The notes under the pieces were generated by a model, which did not search any database, had not been told where the DNA came from, and saw nothing but the letters and a program-made list of their open reading frames with translations. From an uncultured Hyphomicrobiaceae bacterium (GTDB lineage Bacteria > Pseudomonadota > Alphaproteobacteria > Rhizobiales > CAMYJA01): a DNA stretch of 64,000 nucleotides. How positions within the stretch are numbered: position 1 is the first letter of the stretch; each line of letters opens with the position of its first letter. Positions 4,104-53,989 of this stretch are shown here, piece after piece. The position numbers were made by a program, and so were the translations under genes. The stretch is taken from NCBI GenBank assembly GCA_947258705.1, contig CAMYJA010000007.1:74074-138073 (forward strand). Direction: 5' to 3'.

Positions 4104-5177
4104 ATGAAGCACAATCTCAATCTATCCATTTCTCAAAACGCGGCATTCGCGGATCACGAAGAGGTCGTGTTCTGCGACGATCCGAATACCGGTCTTCGGG
4201 CGATCATTGCCGTGCACGACACGACGCTCGGCCCTGCTCTTGGCGGCACACGCATGTGGCCCTATGAAAGCGATGCCGCCGCCCTGCGCGACGTTCTGCG
4301 GCTCTCTTACGGCATGACCTTGAAAAATGCGCTCGCGGGCGTTCTATATGGCGGTGGAAAAGCGGTTATTATAGGCGATCCGAAACGGGACAAAACACCC
4401 GAACTGCTGACGAGTTTCGCCCATTATCTGAATCGCTTCGGCGGCCGGTTTATCACGGGTGAAGACGTAGGCATGCGTGTGGCGGATGCCGATATAATCG
4501 CTCGGGTCACGCCGCATATAAGGGGCACTTCTTCGGGCCATGCGGGTGATCCCTCGCCCTTCACGGCTTATGGCGTCTATTGCGGGCTTCTGGCTGCGGC
4601 CGAACATAAATATTGCAGCCTCGGCATTGAGGGGATGAGCGTTTCGGTCCAGGGACTCGGCGCCGTCGGTATGGCGCTTTGCCAATATCTGCACGATGCG
4701 GGAGCGGAGTTGTTCGTGTCGGATATTCGTATTGAGGCCGTGCGCGAGGCGCAGGACCGTTTTGGCGCATGCCCCGTGTCGCCCGAGGACTCGCACCGTG
4801 TGGCTGCCGACATTTATGCGCCATGCGCCCTGGGCGGCGGCCTCAACGCGCAGACCATACCGGACCTGACGGCGCGGGTGGTTGCCGGTTCGGCAAACAA
4901 TCAGCTCCGCTCCGCGCATGATGGCGATTTGCTGCAGCGGTCCGGCATTCTTTATGCGCCGGACTACGTGATCAATGCAGGCGGCGTTATTTCAATCGCC
5001 CATGACAAGCACGGTTATGATCCCGCCCGGCTACGGGCGCATGTTGCGGGAATTGGAGACACTTTGCGGGAGATTTTCGTTCGGTCTGAAAAAACCGGCC
5101 GTCCGACATCGCGCATTGCCGACGAACTGGCGCTCGCACGGATTGCGCCACCCCATGACCGTCACTTTGCCGCGTGA
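4104..5177 (+). CDS. Glu/Leu/Phe/Val dehydrogenase family (leucine dehydrogenase type)
   Basis: A 357-residue NAD-dependent amino acid dehydrogenase that oxidatively deaminates a branched-chain or related amino acid to its 2-oxo acid. Its length fits the short leucine/phenylalanine dehydrogenase branch and not glutamate dehydrogenase (about 450). Motifs are the glycine-rich GGTRMW start, the catalytic lysine segment in MTLKNALAGVLYGGGKAVI, GEDVGMRVADAD, and the Rossmann segment VSVQGLGAVGMALCQYL. ATG 4104 was chosen over the adjacent in-frame GTG at 4101 because GGAG at 4092-4095 is 8 nt before it. It stands alone, divergent from aspC, and an inverted repeat lies just upstream. Exact substrate is inferred only. 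Confidence 0.88.
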   Translation: MKHNLNLSISQNAAFADHEEVVFCDDPNTGLRAIIAVHDTTLGPALGGTRMWPYESDAAALRDVLRLSYGMTLKNALAGVLYGGGKAVIIGDPKRDKTPELLTSFAHYLNRFGGRFITGEDVGMRVADADIIARVTPHIRGTSSGHAGDPSPFTAYGVYCGLLAAAEHKYCSLGIEGMSVSVQGLGAVGMALCQYLHDAGAELFVSDIRIEAVREAQDRFGACPVSPEDSHRVAADIYAPCALGGGLNAQTIPDLTARVVAGSANNQLRSAHDGDLLQRSGILYAPDYVINAGGVISIAHDKHGYDPARLRAHVAGIGDTLREIFVRSEKTGRPTSRIADELALARIAPPHDRHFAA

Positions 5178-5200
5178 GTTTTAATCGGGCCGGGTGAATT

Positions 5201-6244
5201 CTATCCCCGTTTCGTGCCCTCAAAGCAGGCTTTCAGTGCCGCTGCCAAATTGCGCATCAGTTTAAAATAATGATCGGGTCCGGGCGCGATGGCCGCGCCC
5301 AGGGGATCGAGCGCGCCAAGCCGGGCAGGTGTTCCCTCGATCAGACGCCGCGCCAGCCCGGGTGGAAATTGCGCCTCCGTAAAAAGGCATTTCACGCGTC
5401 CCGATTTGAAGATATTTCTCAACTGAACCAGATGACGCGCACCCGGCTGGATATGTGCGTCCGACGCTACCGCGCCCCATGAACCGAGATCATAGCGCTT
5501 CTCGAAATATTGATAGGCGTCATGATAAACGATGAAGGGTTTTTGGTGGACGGAGGCCAGTTCGCTTCTCAATTCCAAGTCGAGCTCGCGCAAACGCCTG
5601 TTGAGCTCCGCCGCGTTTTTTCTGATCGTATCTGCGTGGATTTTATCGCGTTCCGCCGCCAGATCCGCAAGGGCGGTCACGAATTTCATTGCATTCGCGG
5701 GATCGAGCCAGAGATGGGGATCGAAACTTTCCTCATGATCCCTGTGGCGTGGGTTTCCGGGGTTCTCGGCGGCCGGTTCGCCGGCTTGACCTGACATCGC
5801 TTCGCGCGGCCAAAGTCCCGAGCCGCGAAAGTGATATCGCCTCATCCCGCCTATCTCCGCGAGCCAGAGTACCGTTGTCTTGCCGTTTAAACGCGAGATT
5901 GGGCGCTTAAGGCCTGTTTCGAAGCTTTCATCGACACCGATCACAATATCGGCCTTGCCGAGAAGGTCGATTTCGGACGGCCGCAATTTGTATCCATGTG
6001 GTGAGTGCGTGCCGCGGATAAGCAAATCAGGAGTGCCCGCTCCCTTGAATATGCCTGTCGCGAGTGAATGAAGGGGGGCTATGGTCGCCACCACTTTCAG
6101 CTCCGCCTGAGCATGGCCGGGGGCATGAAGCAGCATGGCGCCGCAAATCACGGCCAGGGTGCTGCGAAAGGCCCACTTCGACCACCCGTGCCCTATACTG
6201 ACGGGCTTTTGCGCCTGGTCCAGCTGCCGCACCTTATCGATCAC
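5201..6244 (-). CDS. znuA: zinc ABC transporter substrate-binding protein ZnuA
   Basis: The periplasmic zinc-binding protein of a high-affinity ZnuABC importer. It has a signal peptide with a hydrophobic core around residues 26-42 ending HAQA, then the cluster A-I fold. Candidate zinc ligands are the histidines in IAPLHSLATGI, GTHSPHGYKL and SFDPHLWLDPANA, plus an acidic residue late in the chain. A short His/Asp/Glu loop, HRDHEESFDPH, resembles the charged loop of ZnuA proteins. The assigned start is GTG, and a later in-frame GTG is possible. No znuB, znuC or zur lies next to it, so the permease and ATPase must be encoded elsewhere. A Zur-like palindrome lies 75 bp upstream. Confidence 0.92.
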   Translation of the reverse strand: MIDKVRQLDQAQKPVSIGHGWSKWAFRSTLAVICGAMLLHAPGHAQAELKVVATIAPLHSLATGIFKGAGTPDLLIRGTHSPHGYKLRPSEIDLLGKADIVIGVDESFETGLKRPISRLNGKTTVLWLAEIGGMRRYHFRGSGLWPREAMSGQAGEPAAENPGNPRHRDHEESFDPHLWLDPANAMKFVTALADLAAERDKIHADTIRKNAAELNRRLRELDLELRSELASVHQKPFIVYHDAYQYFEKRYDLGSWGAVASDAHIQPGARHLVQLRNIFKSGRVKCLFTEAQFPPGLARRLIEGTPARLGALDPLGAAIAPGPDHYFKLMRNLAAALKACFEGTKRG

Positions 6245-6318
6245 CCTTCATACTTCACCCCTATCGCGGGGTTTCATCCTGCTCGCGTCCTGCCGCAGAT
6301 TTATAACTGAAAATGAAG

Positions 6319-6337
6319 AATGTTACATCATAACATT
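6319..6337 (-). promoter_or_regulatory. Zur-box-like operator of znuA
   Basis: AATGTTA-CATCA-TAACATT is a perfect 7-5-7 palindrome. It resembles the Zur operators known upstream of znu genes in proteobacteria, which are AT-rich and built around a GTTATNNNATAAC-like core. It lies between znuA and the CelD-like gene, upstream of znuA only. Repression of znuA by Zur in zinc-replete cells is inferred. Confidence 0.75.
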
Positions 6338-6424
6338 TGTGCAATTTGCGATCGCTGTCATATGCTGATGTTATCAAACCGGGATGGACGGCCATGACGC
6401 CGGCGCAGACACCCAGGTCCGGTG

Positions 6425-7684
6425 TCAGGACCCGGTCAAGTTCTTCAGGCGCTGCCGCATGGCTTTGATCCGGTTGAACCGCGACTCCGAACTTTTGACC
6501 CAGCGCTTTAATCTCAGCTTGCCGATCATCGCCTGTTTGGCAAACCAGCCCCTGAGCGAGTTGGCACGGATTGAAACCATGAGTTCCGAATGCTGGTCAG
6601 CCCATTCGAATTTATAGGGTTCATCGCCGATGGAAAAATCAAACAACTCCCGGCCTTCCTCAGCCATGCGCTCCATCATATCCATGAGCAGCAGCGTGCC
6701 CGGCGAAAATCTTGTGTATTTGCTCAAGCCATAGGCCGTTTGATAGAGAATGAAACTCGACTTATCCGTCAGGCCAAAGGCACTCGCCAGACTTTCGCCG
6801 TTGAGATCAAGAGTGAAGACGCGCAGACTTTCCGTCATCTGGGCATCGCGGGCCAGCTTGTCGAAAAACCGTCCGGTTTCGGCATCAGCGAACGGATCGA
6901 TCGCACCTGTGCCTCTGACCTGATCGCGCTTCCACTGGATGGTTTGAAGGATCATTTCGGCGCGGTCATCGGGCATGGTCAATTCGCGGAACTGCAAAGT
7001 TCCCTGTTCCGCGAGGGACCTTGCCTTGTCTTTCAGGCGACGCCGGGATTTGGCCCCGCGGCGGCGCTGATAATAAGCCTGCCAATCGGCGCCGATATTC
7101 GCAGCGTGATAGCCCAGGCCAAAATCATACGCATCGGTCCGGTAGAATGGATTTTTCAGGCCTGCCAGGAGTTCGGGCTGCTTTGGGAGATAAAGGAGAT
7201 CCACATCCGGGCATTCCATCAGAACGTTTTGCCAGATTTGTTTCGTGTTCCGGGCATTGAGCGTCGCGAAGAACTCTTTGTCGATCAGCGGCGCATTGTA
7301 GTCGCTCAAATGATGTCCGAGCCAGATCAACCGGCTTGTCCCCCAGCGCCGCTCGATTGCCAAAGGCAGGATCAGCTTGAGATCTTCTGCCTGATCGACA
7401 AAAATTATACGCGGCGATAGAGATGATGCCTGATCGCTCTCCTGAAAGGCCTGCCACCAGTTTTTCAACCAGTTTATCGACTGAAAGGGCTGGGCAATGG
7501 CAGTGGATTGAAATGCACGCCATTCGGCCTCACAGGCGTTCAAATCGTCGTAAATCCGGTAATGAAACACTTGTCCAGCCTCGCCGCGCCGTTTAAACGG
7601 CCAGGATAACGGGAGGGCTGATGCGAGCGCCGATTGCTCCTTCAGGTCAGCGCGTCTCCACTCATTGCTGTCTTGCAACGTCAT
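6425..7684 (-). CDS. GNAT-fold acetyltransferase, CelD/BcsL-like (Acetyltransf_6)
   Basis: A 419-residue protein of the family annotated as cellulose biosynthesis CelD or FemAB-like acyltransferase. It has an N-terminal domain around YDDLNACEAEWRAFQ and INWLKNWWQAFQ (residues 45-95). The C-terminal GNAT half contains LDLNGESLASAFGLTDKSSFILYQTAYG and FSPGTLLLMDMMERMAEEG, the usual acyl-CoA-binding region. No membrane segment or signal peptide was seen. Members modify polysaccharides or amino sugars, but no polysaccharide locus surrounds it, so the substrate is unknown. The ATG follows GAGAG with 8-nt spacing. Confidence 0.8.
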   Translation of the reverse strand: MTLQDSNEWRRADLKEQSALASALPLSWPFKRRGEAGQVFHYRIYDDLNACEAEWRAFQSTAIAQPFQSINWLKNWWQAFQESDQASSLSPRIIFVDQAEDLKLILPLAIERRWGTSRLIWLGHHLSDYNAPLIDKEFFATLNARNTKQIWQNVLMECPDVDLLYLPKQPELLAGLKNPFYRTDAYDFGLGYHAANIGADWQAYYQRRRGAKSRRRLKDKARSLAEQGTLQFRELTMPDDRAEMILQTIQWKRDQVRGTGAIDPFADAETGRFFDKLARDAQMTESLRVFTLDLNGESLASAFGLTDKSSFILYQTAYGLSKYTRFSPGTLLLMDMMERMAEEGRELFDFSIGDEPYKFEWADQHSELMVSIRANSLRGWFAKQAMIGKLRLKRWVKSSESRFNRIKAMRQRLKNLTGS

Positions 7685-12544: not shown

Positions 12545-15799
<3,255 letters not shown>

Positions 15800-16918: not shown

Positions 16919-18307
16919 ATGTCCGTATTGCCGGTTGAAAATCCCTATACGCGCGAAATGATCGGCGAGGTGCCGATGAGCGACTGGGGGCAGGCCGATG
17001 GCTGGCTCGACCGGGCTCAGGCATTGCACCGCGATCAGTCGAGCCCCTTGCCCGCCCATGAGCGCATCGCGATCCTCAACCGCGCCGCGCAGATCATGCG
17101 GGAGCGCTTCGCCGATCTCGCCCACCAGATCGCCAATGAGGGCGGCAAGCCGCTCATCGACGCCCGCGTCGAGGTCGAGCGCGCCATTGACGGGGTGGAA
17201 CTGGCGGTGCGCGAGCTTTTGCATTTGCGCGGCACGGAAATCCCCATGGATCTCACTGCAGCGGGGGCGGGACGGATGGCGTTCACGCGGCGCGAGCCCA
17301 TCGGGCCGGTGGCAGCCATATCGGCCTTTAATCATCCGCTCAATCTGATCGTGCACCAGGTGGCGCCCGCAGTCGCGGTGGGATGCCCGGTCATCGTCAA
17401 GCCCGCCGACGATACGCCGCTCTCGGCAAAGGCCTTTGTCGATATTCTGCACGAGGCCGGATTGCCGCCCGATTGGTGCCGGTTTTTCGCCTGCGACATC
17501 CCCACCGCGGAAAAGCTCGTGACCGACCCCCGGGTGGCGTTCTTCTCCTTCATCGGTTCGGCGAAGGTCGGCTGGATGCTCCGGTCCAAACTCGCGCCCG
17601 GCACCCGCTGTGCGCTCGAGCATGGCGGCGCCGCCCCGGTGATCGTCGACGAGACGGCGGATATCGAGGCCATGATCCCGCTCCTGCTCAAGGGCGGCTT
17701 TTATCATGCCGGGCAGGTCTGCGTGTCAGTGCAGCGGGTCTTTGCACCGACCGCGATAGCCAGGGATATCGCCATGCGTCTCGCGGCAGGGGGCGAAAAG
17801 CTCATCGTCGGCGATGCGGTCGAGGAAAAGACCGAGGTTGGCCCCCTGATCCGTCCGGGCGAGGTCACGCGCGTGGCCGAGTGGGTCGAGGAAGCCGGGA
17901 GCGGCGGCGGTGAAATATTGACCGGTGGCGCGCCCCTTGGGCCGACCAGTTTTGCGCCCACGGTGGTGTTCGAGCCACCGGCCTCATGCCGCCTCTCGAC
18001 GATGGAGATTTTCGGCCCGGTCATCGGGGTTTACGGCTATGACGATCTCAATGCGGCCATCGCGCAGGCAAACGCCCTGCCTTTCGCCTTTCAGGCCGCA
18101 GGATTCACCCAGCGTCTCGATGTGGCGACGCGGCTCATCGACGCGCTGGATGCCACCGCCGTCATGATCAATGACCACACCGCTTTCCGGGTCGACTGGA
18201 TGCCCTTTGCCGGGCGGCGCCAGTCCGGCTACGGCACGGGCGGCATCGGCTATACCATGCATGATATGACGGAAGACAAGATGGCCGTGATCAGGATGCC
18301 GCAATAG
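16919..18307 (+). CDS. aldehyde dehydrogenase family protein
   Basis: A 462-residue NAD(P)-dependent aldehyde dehydrogenase. The catalytic cysteine is Cys268 in HAGQVCVSVQRV and the general base Glu234 is in CALEHGGAAPVIV. The N169-type motif is ISAFNHPLNLIVHQVAPA and the coenzyme lysine motif is VIVKPADDTPLSA. The C-terminal signature is MEIFGPVIGVYGYDD. It resembles the branch that includes phosphonoacetaldehyde, sulfolactaldehyde and lactaldehyde dehydrogenases, so the substrate is uncertain. The ATG follows CGAGG with 7-8-nt spacing. It stands alone and converges with the J-domain gene, 19 bp away. GC content is high compared with the upstream region. Confidence 0.88.
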   Translation: MSVLPVENPYTREMIGEVPMSDWGQADGWLDRAQALHRDQSSPLPAHERIAILNRAAQIMRERFADLAHQIANEGGKPLIDARVEVERAIDGVELAVRELLHLRGTEIPMDLTAAGAGRMAFTRREPIGPVAAISAFNHPLNLIVHQVAPAVAVGCPVIVKPADDTPLSAKAFVDILHEAGLPPDWCRFFACDIPTAEKLVTDPRVAFFSFIGSAKVGWMLRSKLAPGTRCALEHGGAAPVIVDETADIEAMIPLLLKGGFYHAGQVCVSVQRVFAPTAIARDIAMRLAAGGEKLIVGDAVEEKTEVGPLIRPGEVTRVAEWVEEAGSGGGEILTGGAPLGPTSFAPTVVFEPPASCRLSTMEIFGPVIGVYGYDDLNAAIAQANALPFAFQAAGFTQRLDVATRLIDALDATAVMINDHTAFRVDWMPFAGRRQSGYGTGGIGYTMHDMTEDKMAVIRMPQ

Positions 18308-45578: not shown

Positions 45579-45695
45579 GTTTAATATCCAACGTGCTTTT
45601 AGGTGGATTCCGGAGCGCTTATACCCGGCTTTCTGCATTGGCCGTCAGCCGGCACCACCTTTGAGACAGATTCACAAAAGGCAATTATTCCCGCC

Positions 45696-46352
45696 ATGCC
45701 AGAAGTCATGATTAACGGCCCGGACGGCCGTCTTGAGGCGCGTTACCATCACAATCCTGCGCCCGATTCGCCTGTTGCGATTATTCTTCATCCGCACCCG
45801 CAATTCGGCGGCACAATGAACAATCAGATCGTCTACAGGCTCTATTACAGTTACGTCGAACGCGGATTTTCGGTTATCCGCTTCAATTTCAGAGGCGTGG
45901 GACGCAGCCAGGGCCTGTTCGACAACGGCATCGGCGAGCTGTCGGATGCGGCCGGCGTGCTCGACTGGGCGCAATCCTTCAATCCGGATTCGCGCTATTG
46001 CTGGATTGCGGGAGTGTCCTTCGGCGCCTGGATATCCATGCAGCTCCTGATGCGCCGGCCCGAGATCGCCGGCTTCATCTCCGTGGCGCCCCCCGCCAAT
46101 CATTATGATTTCAGCTTCCTCGCCCCGTGCCCGTCATCGGGCCTGATGGTCAATGGCGCCGAGGACAAGGTCGTTCCCAATTCATCGGTGGAAGAACTGG
46201 TGGCCAAGCTCAAGACCCAGAAAGGCATCGAGATCACACATGAGCTCATTGCCGGCGCCAATCATTTCTTCGAGGGCAAGGTGGACGAGCTGATGAAGGT
46301 GACGGATGCCTATCTCGACACCCGCCTGGCCGAGCTCGACAAGAAGGCATAG
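45696..46352 (+). CDS. alpha/beta hydrolase (COG2945)
   Basis: A 218-residue alpha/beta hydrolase of the family of short bacterial dienelactone hydrolase-like proteins. It starts MPEVMINGPDGRLEARYHH; the oxyanion part is IILHPHPQFGGTMNNQIVYRLY, the nucleophile elbow is IAGVSFGAWISMQLL, and the catalytic Asp/His are likely in MVNGAEDKVVP and AGANHFFEGK. ATG 45696 is used; the upstream frame (45603) lacks support. It is divergent from iscR. The last 223 bp of the gene are duplicated at 52404-52626, so the gene forms the left border of the accessory segment. The substrate is unknown. Confidence 0.85.
   Translation: MPEVMINGPDGRLEARYHHNPAPDSPVAIILHPHPQFGGTMNNQIVYRLYYSYVERGFSVIRFNFRGVGRSQGLFDNGIGELSDAAGVLDWAQSFNPDSRYCWIAGVSFGAWISMQLLMRRPEIAGFISVAPPANHYDFSFLAPCPSSGLMVNGAEDKVVPNSSVEELVAKLKTQKGIEITHELIAGANHFFEGKVDELMKVTDAYLDTRLAELDKKA
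46130..46352 (+). repeat. direct repeat 1: 3' end of the hydrolase gene
   Basis: 223 bp that align without gaps to 52404-52626, with about 18 mismatches by hand count (about 92 percent). The repeat contains the complete 3' end of the hydrolase reading frame, including its TAG stop. Confidence 0.9.
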
Positions 46353-46632
46353 CGACGCGTTTAATTTCGGATGTCATGTCCGGCAGGTGCCAGAACCGGA
46401 CCTCGGCGGCTGGGAAATTGCTCCCGTTCTGACAAACTTCGGTTCGAGTAAGCCGGCCTATCTCACGTCAGCCAATGTCTACTTTCGGTGAGGGCACATC
46501 ATGTTGATACAAAGAGAACGGATCAAACGGCAGACCATCCAACTCTGGTGATTGCAGTATCGTAAAGGCGCCGCATGGGGACTGCCGACCACATGTGTCA
46601 AGCACTCGCTCATATCAGCTTCTAATCGGTCC

Positions 46633-47052
46633 TCAACCGTCTGATGAGCTACCGTTATGATGCTCCTCCGTTGATGACTCGCAATCCGGCTTGCTTGAAA
46701 TATTCTCAAGCGCCTGACGCCAATCTCCACCGTCTGATGTTTGCTCAGCTTTTTTCGGCTCTTCGACCGGGGTGTAGGGTGGCAAATCGAATGCCTCATA
46801 TTCGAGACTGTCTATCGGATCGGCCGTCGCTGGAAATGCACCGATCCGTGCGGCGAGTTCCTGGAGTTCCGTCAAAATTGCAGCACGGCGGGTCTCATGC
46901 TCAATGGTGACACTTCTCACATCGTCAAGAAGCCGTCTATCCGCATAAGTCAGCGCTTCGCCCAATGCTTCAATGAGCATTTGCTCCCGCTTCGCAACCC
47001 TACTCATCCGTGTGTGAATGCTATTAATGTAATCATTTGATTTGGTGGTCAT
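46633..47052 (-). CDS. hypothetical coiled-coil protein
   Basis: A 139-residue acidic protein with a helical, coiled-coil-prone first half (SRVAKREQMLIEALGEALTYADRRLLDDVRS) and a low-complexity, Ser/Glu/Pro-rich second half. The ATG is preceded by AGGGGG at 6 nt, so it is probably translated. No domain was recognised and no transmembrane segment or signal peptide was seen. It lies on the opposite strand from the hydrolase gene, within the accessory segment. Confidence 0.65.
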   Translation of the reverse strand: MTTKSNDYINSIHTRMSRVAKREQMLIEALGEALTYADRRLLDDVRSVTIEHETRRAAILTELQELAARIGAFPATADPIDSLEYEAFDLPPYTPVEEPKKAEQTSDGGDWRQALENISSKPDCESSTEEHHNGSSSDG

Positions 47053-47459
47053 GACATCCCCCTGTTCCGAATTGCTCTACCGAATCATTTCACTAGTCAT
47101 ATTTTTTCAGGGTAATTCGGTGAAAATGAGATAAAATTCTGGCGGCGTAGCTCCACCCACAGCCGCAATGTCAATGGGAGATGTCGTTATGATCGCGAGC
47201 TGTAAGCGGTAAAATCGTGTCGCCAACGAGCATTCCGTCACATCGAAGGCCGTCGAAGGCCGTCGACGGCCGGGCGCATCTTTTTGACTACCGCGCGCAA
47301 CCACGACAGTACAGGGACGGGAGCAGCCTGACCAATCGGTCGGCGAAAACGGGGAGGGTGTCAGGAGGTTGCTCTTAGAGCTCACCAATATCCAATTGCA
47401 TGACGATTTTGAATAATGGCTGTAACGATTTGGCCAGCTGGTGACTCGTTGTTCGAGAA
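47053..47459. other. intergenic, no supported gene; contains a 10-bp tandem repeat
   Basis: 407 bp. The only distinct structure is three tandem copies of CRTCGAMGGC (47241-47270, CATCGAAGGC, CGTCGAAGGC, CGTCGACGGC). A minus-strand open frame over 47107-47496 runs through it and was not accepted, as it overlaps the peptidase gene and has no start site. Confidence 0.45.
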
Positions 47460-48368
47460 TTATCTCGCGGCAGATTCCAGGAACTGTCCGTGCCAAGCCA
47501 TGCCGTGGCGTGCACCGCCGGCAAAGCCTGTTTTGTTGACGACGATGATCCCAAGGTCCACGTTTTCGGCAAGTTCGTTAAGGGCCCATTCGACGATCTG
47601 CTCGGGGCTCCGCCCCCCTTCAAGCTCCGCATGGGCCCGATAGGCGAGCAAGGACCTTGCGATATACTCGCCATCACCTGTCGTAGCGATGGCTCCGTGC
47701 TTACCTGCATACAGCCCGCAACCGGGTAGCGGCACATCCCCCACACGCCCTCGCAAGACTGCCATTGTGCCCCCAGAGCTGAGGGCGCAAGCAAAGGTCT
47801 GTCCGTCCCAAACAACACTGCCTACCGTGTCACCGCCAAGGACCTCTCGCAGAGGCGTATCATAATTCCACGCACGTTCAAGATCGGTATACGACCATTC
47901 TCCCATCCGATCAGTAATAGCCATCACTTGGCTAAACCGCTTCTTCGCTTTGGGCGTCGTCGGATCATATTCACCAAAGCCGCAACGGCGAGCAAACTCG
48001 GTGGCCCCATCCGCCACAAGCAATATATGGGGGGTGCCAAGCAGGCGTTTCGCAACGGAGATTGGGTTTTTTACTCTCGCAATGGCGGCCACTGCTGCGA
48101 AATCCCCGGCGCTCGTCATGCATGAGGCATCCATTTGGATGGCTTTACCGTCGAGGCGAAGGTTTGAGCCGGTTCCTGCGTTAAAGCGTTCGTCGTCTTC
48201 CAAAGCTTGCGTCGCGCAGATAGCGGCATCCAGCGCTCCTTTTTGTTGGGCAATAATCTCGATCCCGGCGTGACACGCATGTCGAGGCCCGTCTGACTGG
48301 GTCGGATTTGAGGCAGAGCCCGCATGGCAAACGATTATTGGCGTACTCGTTGTAGTCTCTATTGGCAT
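47460..48368 (-). CDS. isoaspartyl peptidase / L-asparaginase (Ntn hydrolase family)
   Basis: A 302-residue type-2 asparaginase-like Ntn hydrolase. It self-cleaves before the nucleophile Thr181 in GGDTVGSVVWDGQTFACA; this motif (GDTVG) is the characteristic site. The N-terminal FNAGTGSNLRLDG segment and C-terminal AIATTGDGEYIARS match the family. Substrates in the family are isoaspartyl dipeptides, beta-aspartyl peptides and asparagine. The start ATG has no strong ribosome binding site. It is divergent from the ATP-grasp gene, across 477 bp. Confidence 0.88.
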   Translation of the reverse strand: MPIETTTSTPIIVCHAGSASNPTQSDGPRHACHAGIEIIAQQKGALDAAICATQALEDDERFNAGTGSNLRLDGKAIQMDASCMTSAGDFAAVAAIARVKNPISVAKRLLGTPHILLVADGATEFARRCGFGEYDPTTPKAKKRFSQVMAITDRMGEWSYTDLERAWNYDTPLREVLGGDTVGSVVWDGQTFACALSSGGTMAVLRGRVGDVPLPGCGLYAGKHGAIATTGDGEYIARSLLAYRAHAELEGGRSPEQIVEWALNELAENVDLGIIVVNKTGFAGGARHGMAWHGQFLESAAR

Positions 48369-48845
48369 GCGGATGAATGTAATCTGGTGCGACGTATTAG
48401 TACAGCTGGATCGTCACGGCAGTTAAAAATGAGGTTAGAATGGCATCCACACGGTGCCTTATTTAAACCGCAATTGACCTCCATAAAGCCACATTGTTTG
48501 TGTGGGCGGGTATGACTTCTTGATGCGCCAGCGTCCCTCGGCCCGACATTCTCTAGCAACAATCCGATCACTAAACGCATGGCACTATGGTCGCCCTGCG
48601 ACGATCCTCTCTGCATTGCTATTTCGAAAAACACAGGTGAGACCAGGCGGACGCCAAAAGCAAGTGGAGTCGCGGCACGATCTTGGGCAATTCGCCGAAG
48701 CTGCAATTCAGCAGTGAGGCTACGACCGATCTGATCAGTTCAAAATATTTTCAGATTTCAGACTCTTGCCAAAATTGGGCAGCGGCTGCACCGCCGTTTC
48801 ACCCCTCTCTGATACGCAAATATTGAATTTGCCAACGGAAAGGCT
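48369..48845. other. intergenic region between divergent peptidase and ATP-grasp genes
   Basis: 477 bp with antisense overlapping open frames (48359-48706 minus, 48502-48717 plus). Neither has a recognised domain or ribosome binding site, and they shadow each other. They may be a decayed gene. The region should hold promoters for both neighbours. Confidence 0.45.
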
Positions 48846-49919
48846 ATGAATATGAACAAAGACGATGCTGTGACGAAGATCGCCCAACATATTGAAGTCA
48901 TTACGACCGATACTACGGATCTGAAGGAAACGGCTTTCGGTTCGGTCGAGACGTGCCGAAGTGTCTACGACGTTCTGAAACACCGCTATAAGCACGTGCA
49001 TCTTAACGTGGTCCAAACAGAACAGGATTTGCAGCGTATCGTCAATCTTGCGCCAGATCTCGTTGTTTTATGTGTCAAGTACATCATTGAAGAAGAACAG
49101 GGAGCAATGATCTGGTTGTCGGACTATTTTTCGCGTCACGAAGTTCCTTTTACCGGATCGGACAGGGCAACACTTGAATTTGACTCCAACAAAGGCAAAG
49201 CGAAAAATGCACTTCTGCGAAAAGGGGTGGCCACAGCGGAGTTTTTCCTCGCACATCCAGGATTATACACGGATGAAAGTGATTTGCCTCTTCCTCTGCC
49301 TCTATTTGTCAAACCTTTGGATGCGGCTAACGGGAACGGCATTGATGAAAACTCGTTGGTCCATGATTTTTTTAGTTATGAAGCAAAGATCGCGGAGATT
49401 TATGCGGTCTATGGCGGCTCCGCACTGGTGGAGGAAGTCCTGCCGGGTCGAGAGTTCACGGTAGCCGTCTTCGACGAACCTGCACACAATTCTCGCTTGA
49501 TCTACCCGGTTGAGGTTATTGTTCCCAGAAATTCCAAGGGAGACAGAGTCCTGGGCTGTTTGGAGAAATCCAACAATCAGGAGGTGCTTCTGCAAGTGGC
49601 CGAGCCTACCAGGACAGCTATTTCTGAACTGGCCGGCAAAGTGTTCTCCGCTCTGGAGGTGCGCGATTTTGGACGTATCGATATCAAGATGGATGCGCAC
49701 GGCAACCCACACTTTATAGAGGCAAATCTTGTTCCGGGCATGACGCCTGGGACGAGTTATTTTCCACGTGCCTGTAATATTAACGGTATGATGTCCTATG
49801 CAAGCGTCGTATTGAAGATCGTTAAAATCGCGTTGCGCAGGAGCGAACTCCCTGCCTTCGTACCCGGACTTGCCGCAGTGCAGAGCTTACCATCCATATT
49901 AGGAGAAACCCATGAGTAG
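48846..49919 (+). CDS. ATP-grasp ligase, D-alanine--D-alanine ligase-like
   Basis: A 357-residue protein with a Ddl-type ATP-grasp domain. Visible are the ATP-binding Lys156 in LFVKPLDAANGNGID, LVEEVLPGREFTVAVF (194-209), and the metal-binding residues Asp279, Glu292 and Asn294 in GRIDIKM and FIEANLVPGMTPGTSYFP, aligned with Ddl. The N-terminal ~100 residues are a short pre-ATP-grasp domain. Ligases of this fold join carboxylates to amino groups; the chain lacks enough Ddl substrate markers to call it Ddl. It overlaps the next gene by 8 nt (ATGAGTAG), so the two are coupled. The start could be ATG 48852. Composition is AT-richer than the flanks. Confidence 0.85.
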   Translation: MNMNKDDAVTKIAQHIEVITTDTTDLKETAFGSVETCRSVYDVLKHRYKHVHLNVVQTEQDLQRIVNLAPDLVVLCVKYIIEEEQGAMIWLSDYFSRHEVPFTGSDRATLEFDSNKGKAKNALLRKGVATAEFFLAHPGLYTDESDLPLPLPLFVKPLDAANGNGIDENSLVHDFFSYEAKIAEIYAVYGGSALVEEVLPGREFTVAVFDEPAHNSRLIYPVEVIVPRNSKGDRVLGCLEKSNNQEVLLQVAEPTRTAISELAGKVFSALEVRDFGRIDIKMDAHGNPHFIEANLVPGMTPGTSYFPRACNINGMMSYASVVLKIVKIALRRSELPAFVPGLAAVQSLPSILGETHE

Positions 49920-50694
49920 AATGCAACGCCTGCGTGATGTTTTTATTCTTTCCGTCGCACTTTTGACGCTTCTGTTTTTTGTTCCCAGCGGAGTGTTTGC
50001 ACAGGGCACGCCCGATAAAATACCAGATCATGCAAGGGCAAAGAGTTACGGGACTGGATGGCAATGCGATATCGGATATCGGGAATTGAATGGAATTTGT
50101 GCGGCCATTAAGGTTCCGGCACATGCATATCTGACAGATGAATCCTATGGACGGGGCTGGGCCTGTTTGAGGGGATATCGGATAGACAATGAGATCTGCG
50201 CCGCCCTCGCGATTCCCGCCAACGCATATCTGAAGTCTTCAGGAGATAGATGGGAATGCCAACGAGGTTATAGGAGGAGCGACGATACCTGCGTTGTTGT
50301 TAGAGTACCGGTGAATGGATACCTTTCGGGGTCTTCTTATGGATCAGGCTGGGCGTGCAATCGAAAGTACCGCGCGGTCGACAGTGCCTGTGTTGCAGTC
50401 AAAGTACCCGCTCACGGATATTTCGTGGACAATTCATACGGAGATGGATGGAAGTGCGATCGAGGGTATCGACCCGCAGATGGTGCCTGTGTTGCAGTCA
50501 AAGTACCCGCCCACGGATATCTCGCAGACGATTCTTATGGATCTGGATGGAAGTGTGAGCGTGGATACCGGGCCGTCAAAGAAACTTGTGCAATTATTAA
50601 AATGCCAGAGAACGCTCACCTCGACTATTCAGCCGAGGATTGGACTTGTAGCCCTCCTTACAAAAAGGAAGGAGAAAGTTGCGTTCTGTCTTGA
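49912..50694 (+). CDS. secreted protein of seven cysteine-pair repeats
   Basis: A 260-residue protein. A signal peptide occupies about 1-31 (LSVALLTLLFFVPSGVFAQ). The rest is seven repeats of about 33 residues. Each has two cysteines in a pattern like VPAHGYLADDSYGSGWKC, followed by a GYR and a second Cys. Such repeats look like small disulfide-bonded modules. Repeats 4-6 are nearly identical at DNA level (99-nt period), indicating recent tandem duplication. AGGAG sits 6 nt before the ATG, and the gene overlaps the ATP-grasp gene by 8 nt. No enzyme domain was seen. The function is unknown; a structural or binding role outside the cytoplasm is likely. Confidence 0.82.
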   Translation: MSRMQRLRDVFILSVALLTLLFFVPSGVFAQGTPDKIPDHARAKSYGTGWQCDIGYRELNGICAAIKVPAHAYLTDESYGRGWACLRGYRIDNEICAALAIPANAYLKSSGDRWECQRGYRRSDDTCVVVRVPVNGYLSGSSYGSGWACNRKYRAVDSACVAVKVPAHGYFVDNSYGDGWKCDRGYRPADGACVAVKVPAHGYLADDSYGSGWKCERGYRAVKETCAIIKMPENAHLDYSAEDWTCSPPYKKEGESCVLS

Positions 50695-50730
50695 ACATAT
50701 CAATGTCCGGTTAGGGCCAATTGCCGATAC

Positions 50731-50818
50731 GCCGGTGTGAAAAAATCTGCAATCAAATCTTAGGGTGCAAACCATGGCGTATTACAGCTCACGGTTTTGA
50801 ATTTTGGACTACGCCGCA
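50731..50818 (+). repeat. 88-bp direct repeat, copy A
   Basis: Starts GCCGGTGTGAAAAAATCTGC and ends GGACTACGCCGCA. Copy B at 51629-51716 matches with about 4 mismatches (about 95 percent). It contains the short inverted pair GGCGTA/TACGCC. It begins 36 bp after the stop of the cysteine-repeat gene. Confidence 0.9.
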
Positions 50819-50955
50819 ATTCTCTTGGATCACACAGAACAAACCGATCGCAAGAACAAGATTGTTTGTCCACGTCCCACATTGTCTTGATAAAGCGTGT
50901 TGGCTACAAAAACAGCCTGTCTATGTCATGCGTCGAGGAAGAGAAAAGGTGCTCT

Positions 50956-51555
50956 GTGACCGACTATAGTTTCTATTACTTCCTTTCCGACAATCTTAGG
51001 ATCTTGATGTGGGCACCTATAATCCTGTCGTTTAAACTTGTTTTCAAGGCGCAACCTGACAGCTCAGCGAGTTGGCGGGTTGTGCGCCTCGTTGGCGCAA
51101 TCGGTTTGCTTTACTTCTCAGCCAATCTGATCTTGCATCTCAGCTATAATTTTCAGTGGTGGGGGATTGATGCATATCACGCACATTTTCCTCAGTGTGA
51201 ATACAAACATTGTGAGGGGGAACGCAAACCCAGAAATTTCGGCGCCAATTTTGCGATCTATTTGATCTTGGGCTGGATTCCAGCCTTGATATTCGTTGGA
51301 TTTTGCGAATTGGGTTGGAGGTATCAACATCGCCACAGGATTCGAGTGCTGAAAGAACGTGATGCCGGATATTTTTTTAGTTCCGCACTGATCATTTTGA
51401 ACTTTCTGTTCATTTCACTTTTTTATGTATTTGCTACTCTTGAAGGTATTGAGCGCTACGGCTTATTTTCTTTGTTTACCTACATATATGGAATTTTATA
51501 TTTACTTGCGCTTGCTCTTGGTATGATTGCTTTGCTGATCCCTTTTTTTCTGTGA
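50956..51555 (+). CDS. hypothetical membrane protein
   Basis: A 199-residue protein with about five hydrophobic segments: MWAPIILSFKLVF, LVGAIGLLYFSANLILHL, FAIYLILGWIPALIFVGF, SSALIILNFLFISLFYVF, and a C-terminal IYGILYLLALALGMIALLIP. The frame is open upstream through repeat A, but GTG 50956 follows AAAGG at 6 nt and is chosen. It lies between the two copies of the 88-bp repeat. No family was recognised. The composition is AT-rich. Confidence 0.65.
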   Translation: MTDYSFYYFLSDNLRILMWAPIILSFKLVFKAQPDSSASWRVVRLVGAIGLLYFSANLILHLSYNFQWWGIDAYHAHFPQCEYKHCEGERKPRNFGANFAIYLILGWIPALIFVGFCELGWRYQHRHRIRVLKERDAGYFFSSALIILNFLFISLFYVFATLEGIERYGLFSLFTYIYGILYLLALALGMIALLIPFFL

Positions 51556-51628
51556 GATTTAATATGAAATATTTTTCTCCAGAGATGCAGAACAGAGAGA
51601 GTTCTGATCGGACGCCACGGACCTACAG

Positions 51629-51716
51629 GCCGGTGTGAAAAAATCTGCGCTCAAATCTTAGGGCGCAAACCACGGCGTATTACAGCTCACGGTTTTGAAT
51701 TTTGGACTACGCCGCA
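51629..51716 (+). repeat. 88-bp direct repeat, copy B
   Basis: Near-identical copy of 50731-50818. Its reverse strand encodes the last ~19 residues of the adjacent minus-strand gene, including the stop codon. Confidence 0.9.
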
Positions 51717-52182
51717 GCTCTAAAAATACCGTGTAGAAACTAGTCGCAATAATTGCAGTATCAAGCGGATATTCTTTTTTCTTTTCGTTCCACTTCCTCT
51801 TAAAAAACTTACTATCGAAAATGAGCGTCATCATTTCATGACCCGGCATTTCCATGCGTTGCTCAGGCTTTTTGCCATATTCGAGAATGACAAGGTCTGA
51901 ATTGGTGGGGTGGCGGTGGAATTGAATCATCTTATCTGTTGTTATCAAAATTTTCCCACGCGCATCCCTTAAAACCGTGTAAGTAAACGGTCGATCGCCT
52001 TGTTGAAATACCCCCGCACGGCCGATCATGTAGCCGTTCGGCAGCACCACGCATTTGGCCCGCATGTCAATTCTGATCCAAACGTTGAGGATTACGTACA
52101 GAAACAGAAATATGCCGAAATATTTCAAAGAAACCCAAAGACAGCCTTTTCTTTTACGTTCCGAACCGGCTTTTCTGGCCAT
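51658..52182 (-). CDS. hypothetical single-pass membrane protein
   Basis: A 174-residue protein. It has a basic N-terminus, one hydrophobic segment (LKYFGIFLFLYVILNVWI, about 19-36) and a mainly hydrophilic C-terminal domain, such as GKILITTDKMIQFHRHPTNSD. ATG 52182 follows AAGG at 9 nt; the longer frame begins with GTG. The C-terminal RSPKFKTVSCNTPWFAP lies in copy B of the 88-bp repeat, so the end of the reading frame was probably replaced or truncated by that element. No family was recognised. Confidence 0.6.
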   Translation of the reverse strand: MARKAGSERKRKGCLWVSLKYFGIFLFLYVILNVWIRIDMRAKCVVLPNGYMIGRAGVFQQGDRPFTYTVLRDARGKILITTDKMIQFHRHPTNSDLVILEYGKKPEQRMEMPGHEMMTLIFDSKFFKRKWNEKKKEYPLDTAIIATSFYTVFLELRRSPKFKTVSCNTPWFAP

Positions 52183-52403
52183 CAAGGTAAACCTTCGCCC
52201 AAACGCTGGCGCTCCATTGATCACTGATTTTGTATGGCGTGCCGCCGGGGTGTGAGGGGCATGCCGGCCGCGTAATTCCGTAAGCGGATTTTTTACCGCG
52301 ACGCATAAGTTCGCGCAATGCGCGATCTCTTATATAATCGCGAAGGGATTGATCGGCCTTGCCGATTTTCTTACACCCGGCTCATTCGCCTCAACCAGCC
52401 CGA

Positions 52404-52626
52404 CCCGTCATCGGACCTGATGGTCAATGGCGTCGAGGACAACGTCGTTCCCAATCCATCGGTGGAAATACTGGTGGGCAAGCTCAAGACCCAGAAAGGC
52501 ATCGAGATCAAGCATGAGTTCATTACCGGTGCCAATCATTTCTTCGCGGGCAAGGTGGACGAGCTGATGAAAGTGACTGATGCCTATCTCGATGCCCGCC
52601 TGGCCGAGCTCGACAAGAAGACATAG
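52404..52626 (+). pseudogene. truncated copy of the alpha/beta hydrolase 3' end
   Basis: 223 bp that match the last 223 bp of the hydrolase gene at 45696-46352 at about 92 percent. It encodes SSDLMVNGVEDNVVP and GANHFFAGKVDELMKVT, ending with the same TAG. Nothing upstream resembles the rest of the gene: the catalytic Ser and oxyanion parts are missing, so it is not functional. The differences include nonsynonymous changes, consistent with relaxed constraint. Confidence 0.9.
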
Positions 52627-52690: not shown

Positions 52691-53914
52691 TTAATGAGTG
52701 CTCCGCCCTGCGATGGCCGGCTCAACGACCTTCCCGCCCGTCATCGGCCGCGCCACCCCCGTCGTTCCCGGGAAGGTCAGGGGCAGGTCTTTGAGGCAGC
52801 GCACCGCCAGGTATGCGAAGGCTTCCGCCTCCATGAATTCGCTCGACCAATTGTCGCTAGCGACGTCGCTAGCGACGGCGCTTGTGGCCCTGTCGCGAGC
52901 GGTTTCGCCATCAGTGTCCCCGTCATTTGTGACATTGTGACAAGCGATTTTATCGGCGGCCATGACCTCGCCGTCGAGGCGCTTTTGGAGCTCACCCATG
53001 AGGGCGGGATTGCGCGCACCGCCGCCGGTGATGATCCATTGTTTCGGCGGCATGGGAAAATGAAAATCCGCCCGGGCTATTGAAAGAGCCGTGAAGGCCG
53101 TCAATGTCGCGGCGCCCGCCTCAAGTGAAAGCCCCTCCACCGCGTCGAGCGAAAAGGCGTCCCGGTCGAGGGATTTGGGGGGTGTCTCGGCGAAATAGGG
53201 ATTGTCCAGGAGCCGTGCCAGCCTCGGCTCCGACAGTTTTCCCTCAAGCGCGCATTTGCCGTCGCGGTCCATCGGCTCCGCGCCATGCCGCGCCATCCAG
53301 TCATCGATAAGCGCATTGCCGGGTCCGGTATCGAAGGCCAGAAGCTCATCGCCCTCGCCGATCCACGTCACATTGGCGACGCCGCCGATATTGACGATGC
53401 ATATAGGCAGATCGAGCCCCGTAGATCCGGCCAGAGCCTGATGATAGACCGGCACCAGCGGCGCGCCCTCGCCGCCTGCCGCCACGTCCCGGCTGCGAAA
53501 ATCACAGGCGGTGCGGATACCGGTCTTATCGGCGAGCAATGCCCCGTCACCCAATTGGACGGTCAAATGATCTTCCGGCCGGTGCATGACCGTCTGGCCG
53601 TGAAAGCCGAGAATATCGATGTCGCCTGCGTCCCAGCCATATTCCTCGAGATAGCGCGCGACCGCGTCCGCATGTTTGAAGGTGAGTTCTTCCTCGACCC
53701 CGGCCAAAGAACCCGGACGCTCATCGGCGGCGCCCAAACCGCAGGCGTCTTCGAGAGCGCCGCGCAATCGTTCGCGGAACGCCGGATCATATGGGACCGC
53801 GAGGCCCGGACCCCGTTTGAGCACGCTTTCACCGTCCGTTTCGACGAGTGCAAGGTCGATGCCGTCCATGGACGTCCCGCTCATGAGGCCGATGGCACGC
53901 AAGATCTTTGTCAA
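52691..53914 (-). CDS. anmK: anhydro-N-acetylmuramic acid kinase
   Basis: A 407-residue kinase that opens and phosphorylates 1,6-anhydroMurNAc for peptidoglycan recycling. The signature [22 protein letters not shown] is at the N-terminus (7-28), followed by [17 protein letters not shown], the metal/phosphate region [12 protein letters not shown], and [17 protein letters not shown] 53914 is the start: AGGAG lies 8 nt upstream, and the frame to 53983 is not needed. About 30 low-complexity residues (ending [10 protein letters not shown]) are inserted in the C-terminal region before [18 protein letters not shown]; they contain two tandem 12-bp palindromes. It is divergent from tyrS. Confidence 0.93.
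52853..52876 (-). repeat. two tandem palindromic 12-mers in anmK
   Basis: GTCGCTAGCGAC occurs twice in direct tandem. Each unit is itself a palindrome. On the minus strand it encodes VASDVASD, within a region absent from typical AnmK proteins. Confidence 0.85.
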
Positions 53915-53989
53915 AGTCGCTTCTCCTACAGCCTCGAAACTGCTAAACCGCCTCACGCGGTTGAGATAATAGAGGCACATCACACATTC

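What the first reader, a model, noticed from the sequence alone, without database searches (positions are those of the whole stretch)
46130..52626. 6-kb accessory segment bracketed by a duplicated gene 3' end
The last 223 bp of an alpha/beta hydrolase gene, ending at its stop codon, recur about 6.05 kb further on at about 92 percent identity without gaps. Between the copies are genes that look unlike the flanking housekeeping sequence: AT-richer, with hypothetical membrane proteins and small repeats. A gene 3' end that is regenerated at one junction is the signature of site-specific insertion into a gene end, as with islands that carry their own copy of the target. The divergence of about 8 percent means the copy came with the segment or the event is old. 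No integrase was seen, so the mover is missing or outside my recognition.
Basis: partly seen in the sequence, partly recalled or inferred. Interest (0 to 1): 0.75.

Follow-up and report, generated by a model that had tools for sequence, protein, structure and literature searches.

The report
Foreign insert with duplicated gene end
A 6-kb stretch of foreign DNA, including the cut-off end of a phage-type toxin gene and its probable protective partner, was inserted behind a housekeeping gene and left a second, now decaying, copy of that gene's tail on its far side.

Summary
The last 223 bp of an alpha/beta-hydrolase gene (46130-46352) recur at 52404-52626, 92% identical and gap-free, at only these two places in the genome. 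Relatives show the empty site: in 60 of 109 loci anmK or tyrS follows within 300 bp, and in 0 of 109 was a second hydrolase piece found in the DNA held. So the 6,051 bp between were inserted in the window's lineage. The 18 differences fall 6/6/6 on codon positions, against 75% at third positions between working orthologues: the copies were near-identical at the event and the right one has decayed; it did not arrive already diverged. The site-specific reading is not supported: no tyrosine recombinase in the window, no other island found at this end. 'Insertion with long target duplication' fits better. The right edge of the cargo is a 72-codon C-terminal stub of a Phage_Mu_F-domain (polymorphic-toxin type) gene overlapping an immunity candidate (PH). 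All four PH relatives found lie beside Mu_F sequence, one again beside only a stub. A second direct repeat, PH's own 3' end, is nested inside. Mostly ordinary: a decayed accessory island.

The parts
45693..46352 (+). intact alpha/beta-hydrolase gene (219 aa), the target gene
   Evidence: Pfam Peptidase_S15 / Hydrolase_4; DNA match in 56 of 61 genomes, own included
46130..46352 (+). repeat copy 1: last 223 bp of the intact hydrolase gene
46353..52403 (.). inserted segment, 6,051 bp, 50.0% GC, atypical tetranucleotide profile
46633..47052 (-). 139-aa protein of unknown function; 35-42% identical relatives in 6 other genomes of the order
47460..48368 (-). Asparaginase_2 (isoaspartyl peptidase-like) protein, 302 aa
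   Evidence: Pfam 3.5e-56
48846..49919 (+). D-Ala-D-Ala-ligase-like ATP-grasp protein, 357 aa
49912..50694 (+). Cys/Trp repeat protein, 260 aa, with a hydrophobic N-terminus (by eye); start overlaps the ATP-grasp gene's end
50731..50818 (-). repeat D2 copy 1: stub of the 3' end of the PH gene; 4 of 88 mismatches to copy 2
50956..51555 (+). 'mem': membrane protein; GTG start suggested by eye from the relative in L317 (open frame runs from 50797)
51629..51716 (-). repeat D2 copy 2: the last 59 bp of PH (about 19 codons and the stop) plus 29 bp after it
51658..52182 (-). 'PH': membrane-anchored protein (by eye), candidate immunity protein of the Mu_F-type gene; start taken as the ATG at 52182 (open frame runs to 52224)
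52154..52372 (-). C-terminal stub (72 codons plus stop) of a Phage_Mu_F-domain protein gene, N-terminal part missing
   Evidence: 50% identity over 70 aa to the L105 Mu_F protein, E 4e-14; best of 200 shuffles 30.8 bits against 65.5
52404..52626 (+). repeat copy 2: displaced, decaying 3' end of the hydrolase gene
52691..53983 (-). anmK, native neighbour of the hydrolase gene

Best explanation
Shown: in the window's lineage 6,051 bp of foreign DNA were inserted between the hydrolase gene and anmK. The last 223 bp of the hydrolase gene are now present on both sides; the left copy belongs to the intact gene and the right copy is a dead tail that has decayed since the two were near-identical. Shown: the segment's right edge carries only the last 72 codons of a Phage_Mu_F-domain gene, overlapping a small gene (PH) whose relatives lie beside Mu_F sequence in all four other places found. 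Inferred: the insertion came about without a dedicated recombinase, as a break-repair or template-switch event that copied a length of target ('insertion with long target duplication'); it was tolerated because the copied stretch included the whole gene end, so the hydrolase stayed intact. Inferred: what is left of the cargo is an orphan immunity gene (PH, perhaps with the convergent membrane gene mem) plus unrelated accessory genes, after the toxin-type gene was broken.
For: Empty site: 60 of 109 loci have anmK or tyrS within 300 bp of the hydrolase stop; 17 of 109 had under 1.5 kb of room with neither seen; in 0 of 109 was a second hydrolase piece found. The right copy ends 64 bp from anmK (from coordinates), as in several relatives (11-83 bp in eight). 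Decay: 18 differences, 6/6/6 by codon position, 12 of 73 codons changed in amino acid; control pairs of working orthologues at 4-14% divergence have 833 of 1107 differences at third positions and 221 of 3434 amino acids changed, P = 2e-4 (50 non-independent pairs). Gly150 is Gly in 80 of 80 relatives and Asp in the right copy. Foreign composition. Mu_F stub. PH relatives beside Mu_F sequence in L102, L103, L104 and L105, 4 of 4; in L103 too only a C-terminal stub of 34 residues was matched. L317 has a Mu_F gene, a PH-like gene and a convergent mem relative. No tyrosine recombinase in the window.
Against: No genome closer than the same order was available: all 60 others, and all rows shown, are of the same order only; so the event is not seen in a close pair. 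The repeat ends at the stop codon almost to the base, which a random target copy would not need. The right edge lies inside a gene, so a later deletion may have set the 223-bp length. No Ku gene in the genome, so capture by Ku-type end joining is unlikely. With the six closest but distant relatives as yardstick the codon test gives only P = 0.058.
Confidence: 0.55

Rival explanations
1. Whole-gene tandem duplication of the hydrolase followed by insertion of the foreign DNA into, and deletion of the 5' part of, the second copy; the 223 bp are what is left of a paralogue.
For: The right junction brings together two broken genes (Mu_F-type and hydrolase), as a deletion would. A similar 3'-end stub of PH is nested in the same segment.
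Against: Needs at least two events. In 0 of 109 loci was a second hydrolase piece found. Sequence after the left stop codon does not match that after the right one beyond a weak 28-bp tail.
Confidence: 0.2
2. Single crossover (Campbell type) of a circular DNA that carried the same hydrolase 3' end, for example a circle excised earlier from a sister genome. A circle model of this kind was proposed for transposed Arabidopsis genes with flanking repeats (PMC2869330, passages).
For: Gives exactly hydrolase - cargo - hydrolase tail, with near-identical copies at the event, as the codon pattern asks. The repeat protein of the cargo has relatives on plasmids (35 records).
Against: Needs a circle that already carries this gene end. 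No plasmid match for three other cargo proteins at E 1e-3 nor for the ATP-grasp protein at E 1e-15; no relative of the hydrolase found in viral contigs. The Asparaginase_2 protein was not searched in plasmids.
Confidence: 0.15
3. Site-specific integration into the gene's 3' end by a tyrosine recombinase, with the recombinase gene since lost.
For: Topology matches: gene end regenerated on one side, old end displaced on the other; the repeat ends at the stop codon; identical runs of up to 32 bp remain in the repeat, long enough for a core.
Against: No tyrosine recombinase in the window; of the genome's four, two lie on the same contig 146 kb or more away and two on other contigs. Pfam gave no recombinase or transposase for the six main proteins of the segment. 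In 0 of 109 loci is the same end used, and 27 re-tested loci show no repeat.
Confidence: 0.1

Closest known systems
'Insertion with long target duplication' of Helicobacter pylori (Nobusato et al. 2000, not read; described in PMC1643837, passages)
   Same: Foreign genes between two long direct copies of a target that is single in the relative; the passages read name no enzyme.
   Different: There frequently associated with restriction-modification genes and found by comparing two strains; PMC4978471 (passages) suggests a site-specific manner for one case. Here no restriction-modification gene was recognised among the six main proteins, the host belongs to an order whose named members are Hyphomicrobiales, and only order-level relatives are available.
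Genomic islands integrated at gene 3' ends by tyrosine recombinases (general knowledge, recalled)
   Same: Gene end regenerated at one junction and displaced end at the other.
   Different: No recombinase in the window, no recurrent use of the site in 109 loci.
MuF polymorphic toxins of temperate phages (PMC5576092, abstract and passages)
   Different: In the window only the last 72 codons remain. In L102 and L105 the neighbours tested by Pfam that gave a match are host genes (priA; ccm genes and a LysR gene), not phage genes.
Orphan immunity arrays left after effector displacement (PMC5361080, abstract)
   Same: Immunity-type genes kept after their toxin is lost.
   Different: Type VI secretion there; here a Mu_F-type gene, and the immunity role of PH and mem is inferred from position only.

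Membership tests
insertion with long target duplication | site empty in relatives | tested here: met
   60 of 109 loci with anmK or tyrS within 300 bp; second hydrolase piece found in 0 of 109
insertion with long target duplication | long direct duplication of the target on both sides of the insert | tested here: met
   223 bp, 92%; the present length may be reduced by a later deletion
insertion with long target duplication | target present once in a closely related strain | tested here: inconclusive
   only order-level relatives available; single in those
insertion with long target duplication | restriction-modification cargo (said to be frequent, not required) | tested here: not met
   none recognised in the six main proteins
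integrase-borne genomic island | recombinase gene in the element | tested here: not met
   no PF00589 match in the window, four elsewhere in the genome; no other recombinase by Pfam in the six main proteins
integrase-borne genomic island | same gene end used by other islands | tested here: not met
   0 of 109 loci; 27 of them re-tested at DNA level, none
integrase-borne genomic island | short identical core in both copies | tested here: inconclusive
   18 differences spread over 223 bp; longest identical runs 32, 26 and 24 bp
MuF polymorphic toxin module | N-terminal Mu_F domain | tested here: not met
   the window keeps only the part matching residues 284-353 of the L105 protein
MuF polymorphic toxin module | small gene directly after the C-terminal domain | tested here: met
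   PH overlaps the end of the stub, as its relatives do in L102 and L105
MuF polymorphic toxin module | toxicity and neutralisation | not testable with these tools
   needs co-expression in a laboratory strain

The most novel reading that the evidence does not exclude
This lineage gains accessory DNA by a recombinase-free process that copies long, variable stretches of target (88 to 223 bp here): three spaced direct repeats around AT-richer DNA lie on one 278-kb contig and none was found in another 712 kb of the same genome. Standalone Mu_F-type toxin/immunity modules in housekeeping loci would be among its cargo.
Probability: 0.15. Interest if true: 0.5.

Novelty: new member of a known kind. 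Interest (0 to 1): 0.3.

Why it matters
It is a clean case of how accessory DNA can enter a chromosome without a recognisable mover: the empty site is documented in relatives, the target gene was kept whole, and codon-position counts tell which copy is dead and that the copies were alike at the event. It also shows a toxin-type gene cut at an insertion edge with its immunity candidate left behind, an arrangement that recurs in one relative, and points to Mu_F-type modules beside host genes rather than in recognised prophages.

Tried and rejected
Rejected: tRNA-linked island (no tRNA found in the window). Integron-like cassette with D2 as recombination site: D2 does not fold better than shuffles, and its two copies are the 3' end of the PH gene and a stub of it. 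Ku-type end joining: no Ku in the draft genome. Phage or plasmid origin: no PH relative in phages or plasmids; rep, PH and the hydrolase without a relative in viral contigs; the 46633-47052 protein and mem without a match in plasmids at E 1e-3, the ATP-grasp protein at E 1e-15; only rep has plasmid-borne relatives (35 records). Operon of rep with amino-acid ligases: rep overlaps an ATP-grasp gene here and a Mur-ligase gene in L051, but no such partner was seen in the other rep loci whose upstream frames I listed, so it was not pursued. Genome-wide recurrence of spaced repeats: not found outside contig C7 in the part sampled. The third repeat on C7 (232500/235867) could not be shown to mark an insertion: in 18 loci of its neighbouring gene from relatives only one neighbour of that gene was matched once. 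My first check of co-location missed several known relatives because of its frame filter; one search repeated it with tblastn.
Full report
Observation. The 223-bp direct repeat is as described: 46130-46352 and 52404-52626, 18 mismatches, no gaps, and these are the only two places found in the genome. The window is part of contig C7 (278,436 bp) of a 2.77-Mb, 66-contig genome. All 60 other genomes, and all rows shown, are related to it only at the level of the order.

Empty site. The hydrolase gene has a DNA-level match in 56 of 61 genomes searched, own included; the second matches in five other genomes are scraps of 25-36 bp. In 32 anmK and in 28 tyrS follows within 300 bp; in 19 more one of them was matched at 0.3-8.5 kb; in 13 neither was seen with at least 1.5 kb of room; in 17 neither was seen with less room. 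In 0 of 109 did a second hydrolase piece appear at E 1e-5 in the DNA held. Twenty-seven of these loci, with other DNA at the site or no neighbour seen, were searched at DNA level for a repeat of the hydrolase end; none had one. So the site tolerates insertions in the order, but the duplicated end was seen only in the window's lineage. The second copy ends 64 bp from the end of anmK, like the native gene end in several relatives.

Which copy is dead. The 18 differences fall 6, 6 and 6 on the codon positions and change 12 of 73 amino acids. As a control I took all pairs of the 80 named orthologues that differ by 4-14% in the same 73 codons: 50 pairs, 833 of 1107 differences at third positions, 221 of 3434 amino acids changed; at that rate 6 or fewer of 18 at third positions has P = 2e-4 (the pairs are not independent). 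Against the six closest but much more distant relatives the same test gives P = 0.058. With the 20 closest relatives the majority base agrees with the left copy at 9 of the 18 sites, with the right at 2, with neither at 7; Gly150 is kept in 80 of 80 relatives and is Asp in the right copy. Hence the right copy has most likely decayed without function since a time when the two were near-identical. This argues against a copy that arrived already diverged.

Cargo. The segment has 50.0% GC against 56.1% for the contig, and 1 of 273 windows of its size is as far from the contig's tetranucleotide profile. Left to right: a 139-aa protein of unknown function; an Asparaginase_2 protein; a Ddl-like ATP-grasp protein; a Cys/Trp repeat protein (rep) whose start overlaps the ATP-grasp gene's end; a membrane protein (mem); a membrane-anchored protein (PH) on the minus strand. 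Relatives occur in few genomes of the order, own genome included each time: ATP-grasp 16 of 199 (4 others above 35% identity), rep 12 of 199, PH 4 of 199, the 139-aa protein 7 of 199, mem 2 of 297; the Asparaginase_2 protein was not searched in genomes. In the 20 stretches fetched around relatives no two different cargo proteins were found together; in one of them, L095, two rep copies lie with a Mu_F-domain piece about 2.2 kb from the nearer one.

The right edge. PH has four relatives in three other genomes, and all four lie beside Mu_F sequence: in L102 and L105 directly after, and overlapping, a long Phage_Mu_F-domain gene; in L104 between a long Mu_F stretch and a second Mu_F fragment; in L103 beside only a 34-residue match to the C-terminus of the L102 protein, the same 'stub plus PH' as in the window. 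The mem relative in G140 (L317) is convergent with a PH-like gene that follows a Phage_Mu_F-domain gene, the order and orientation of PH and mem in the window; the PH-like protein is only weakly similar to PH (36% over 50 aa, E 0.002 in a one-to-one comparison). In the window, minus strand 52372-52154 encodes 72 residues and a stop; they match residues 284-353 of the L105 Mu_F protein at 50% (E 4e-14) and the L102 protein at 35% (E 1e-4), while 200 shuffled queries reach at most 30.8 bits against 65.5. The L317 protein has no convincing match to the stub. Thirty-one bp separate the first matching codon from the hydrolase copy, and the frame is not open through them. About four fifths of the gene, with the Mu_F domain, are missing. 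Whether the incoming DNA ended there or a later deletion joined the two broken genes cannot be told; in the second case 223 bp are a lower bound of the original duplication. In print, 89.4% of 191 MuF toxin genes are followed by a small gene taken to encode immunity (PMC5576092, passages), and immunity genes are kept after effectors are displaced (PMC5361080, abstract).

Nested repeat. PH's last 59 bp plus 29 bp after it (51629-51716) recur at 50731-50818 on the other side of mem with 4 of 88 mismatches; a weaker protein-level match with one stop runs on to 50909. Its divergence does not differ from that of the hydrolase repeat (Fisher P 0.33). I read it as a stub of a tandem PH copy.

Is it a habit of this genome? 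On C7 three direct repeats of 88-223 bp lie 0.9-6.3 kb apart, the third at C7 232500-232671 / 235867-236044 around DNA of 51.7% GC; one more of 50 bp has copies 435 bp apart. In all of C2 (332 kb) and 19 further 20-kb stretches, at 50 bp or more and 78% or more, none had spacing between 0.6 and 15 kb: five close tandem-type pairs and two 56-57-bp pairs more than 30 kb apart were seen. Controls of 400 kb gave 0 local direct and 1 inverted (G029), and 1 direct and 1 inverted (G019). For the third repeat an insertion could not be shown. This is a hint only.

Mechanism. The topology (gene, cargo, dead tail) fits integrase islands, single-crossover integration and insertion with long target duplication alike. 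Against an integrase: no tyrosine recombinase in the window, two on the same contig 146 kb or more from the right copy and two on other contigs, and no recurrence at this end; a short core cannot be excluded. Against Ku-type end joining: no Ku found. I put most weight on a recombinase-free insertion that copied a stretch of target. It matches the pattern named by Nobusato et al. 2000 (not read; cited through PMC1643837 and PMC3154945, passages), there frequently with restriction-modification genes in Helicobacter pylori. A search of the held library for that phrase together with 'insertion' and 'alphaproteobacteria' returned no paper; the phrase alone returned 19.

Verdict. A genuine, lineage-specific and not recent insertion with an unusual but known kind of scar; the cargo is a decayed accessory island with an orphan toxin-immunity remnant. 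The site-specific reading is not supported.

Noticed in passing
49912-50694 and 48846-49919: A repeat protein (GWxCxRGYR...C...VPxNAYL units) starts within the end of a Ddl-like ATP-grasp gene; in L051 (G014) a relative overlaps a Mur-ligase gene in the same way. No such partner was seen in the other rep loci whose upstream frames were listed; no solved structure matches the family at E 0.01.
   Followed up: partly
L102:4916-6572, L105:4938-6501, L317:24-2103: Phage_Mu_F-domain genes with a following small gene; in L102 and L105 the neighbours that Pfam could name are host genes (priA; ccm genes, LysR), although MuF toxins were described as exclusive to temperate phages and prophages (PMC5576092).
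   Followed up: partly
L104 (G030:C10) about 4711-6452: A Mu_F stretch, a PH relative and a second Mu_F fragment in a row, with frames broken in places, like a decaying array.
   Followed up: no
L095 (G063:C5) 4487-5254, 14366-15151, 17329-17475: Two relatives of the repeat protein and a Mu_F-domain piece within 13 kb.
   Followed up: no
G000 contig C7 232500-232671 and 235867-236044 (L089): A further direct repeat (179 bp aligned, 87%) around 3.2 kb at 51.7% GC with genes that look by eye like a histidine kinase, a LysR regulator and a peroxiredoxin.
   Followed up: partly
G000 contig C7 about 265000-278000 (L091): AT-rich region near the contig end with two tyrosine recombinase genes at 272640 and 277156, perhaps an integrated element.
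   Followed up: no
hydrolase-anmK/tyrS junction in L249, L251, L264, L273: Other relatives carry 2.5-8.5 kb of DNA between the hydrolase gene and anmK or tyrS, so this gap is a recurrent landing place.
   Followed up: partly
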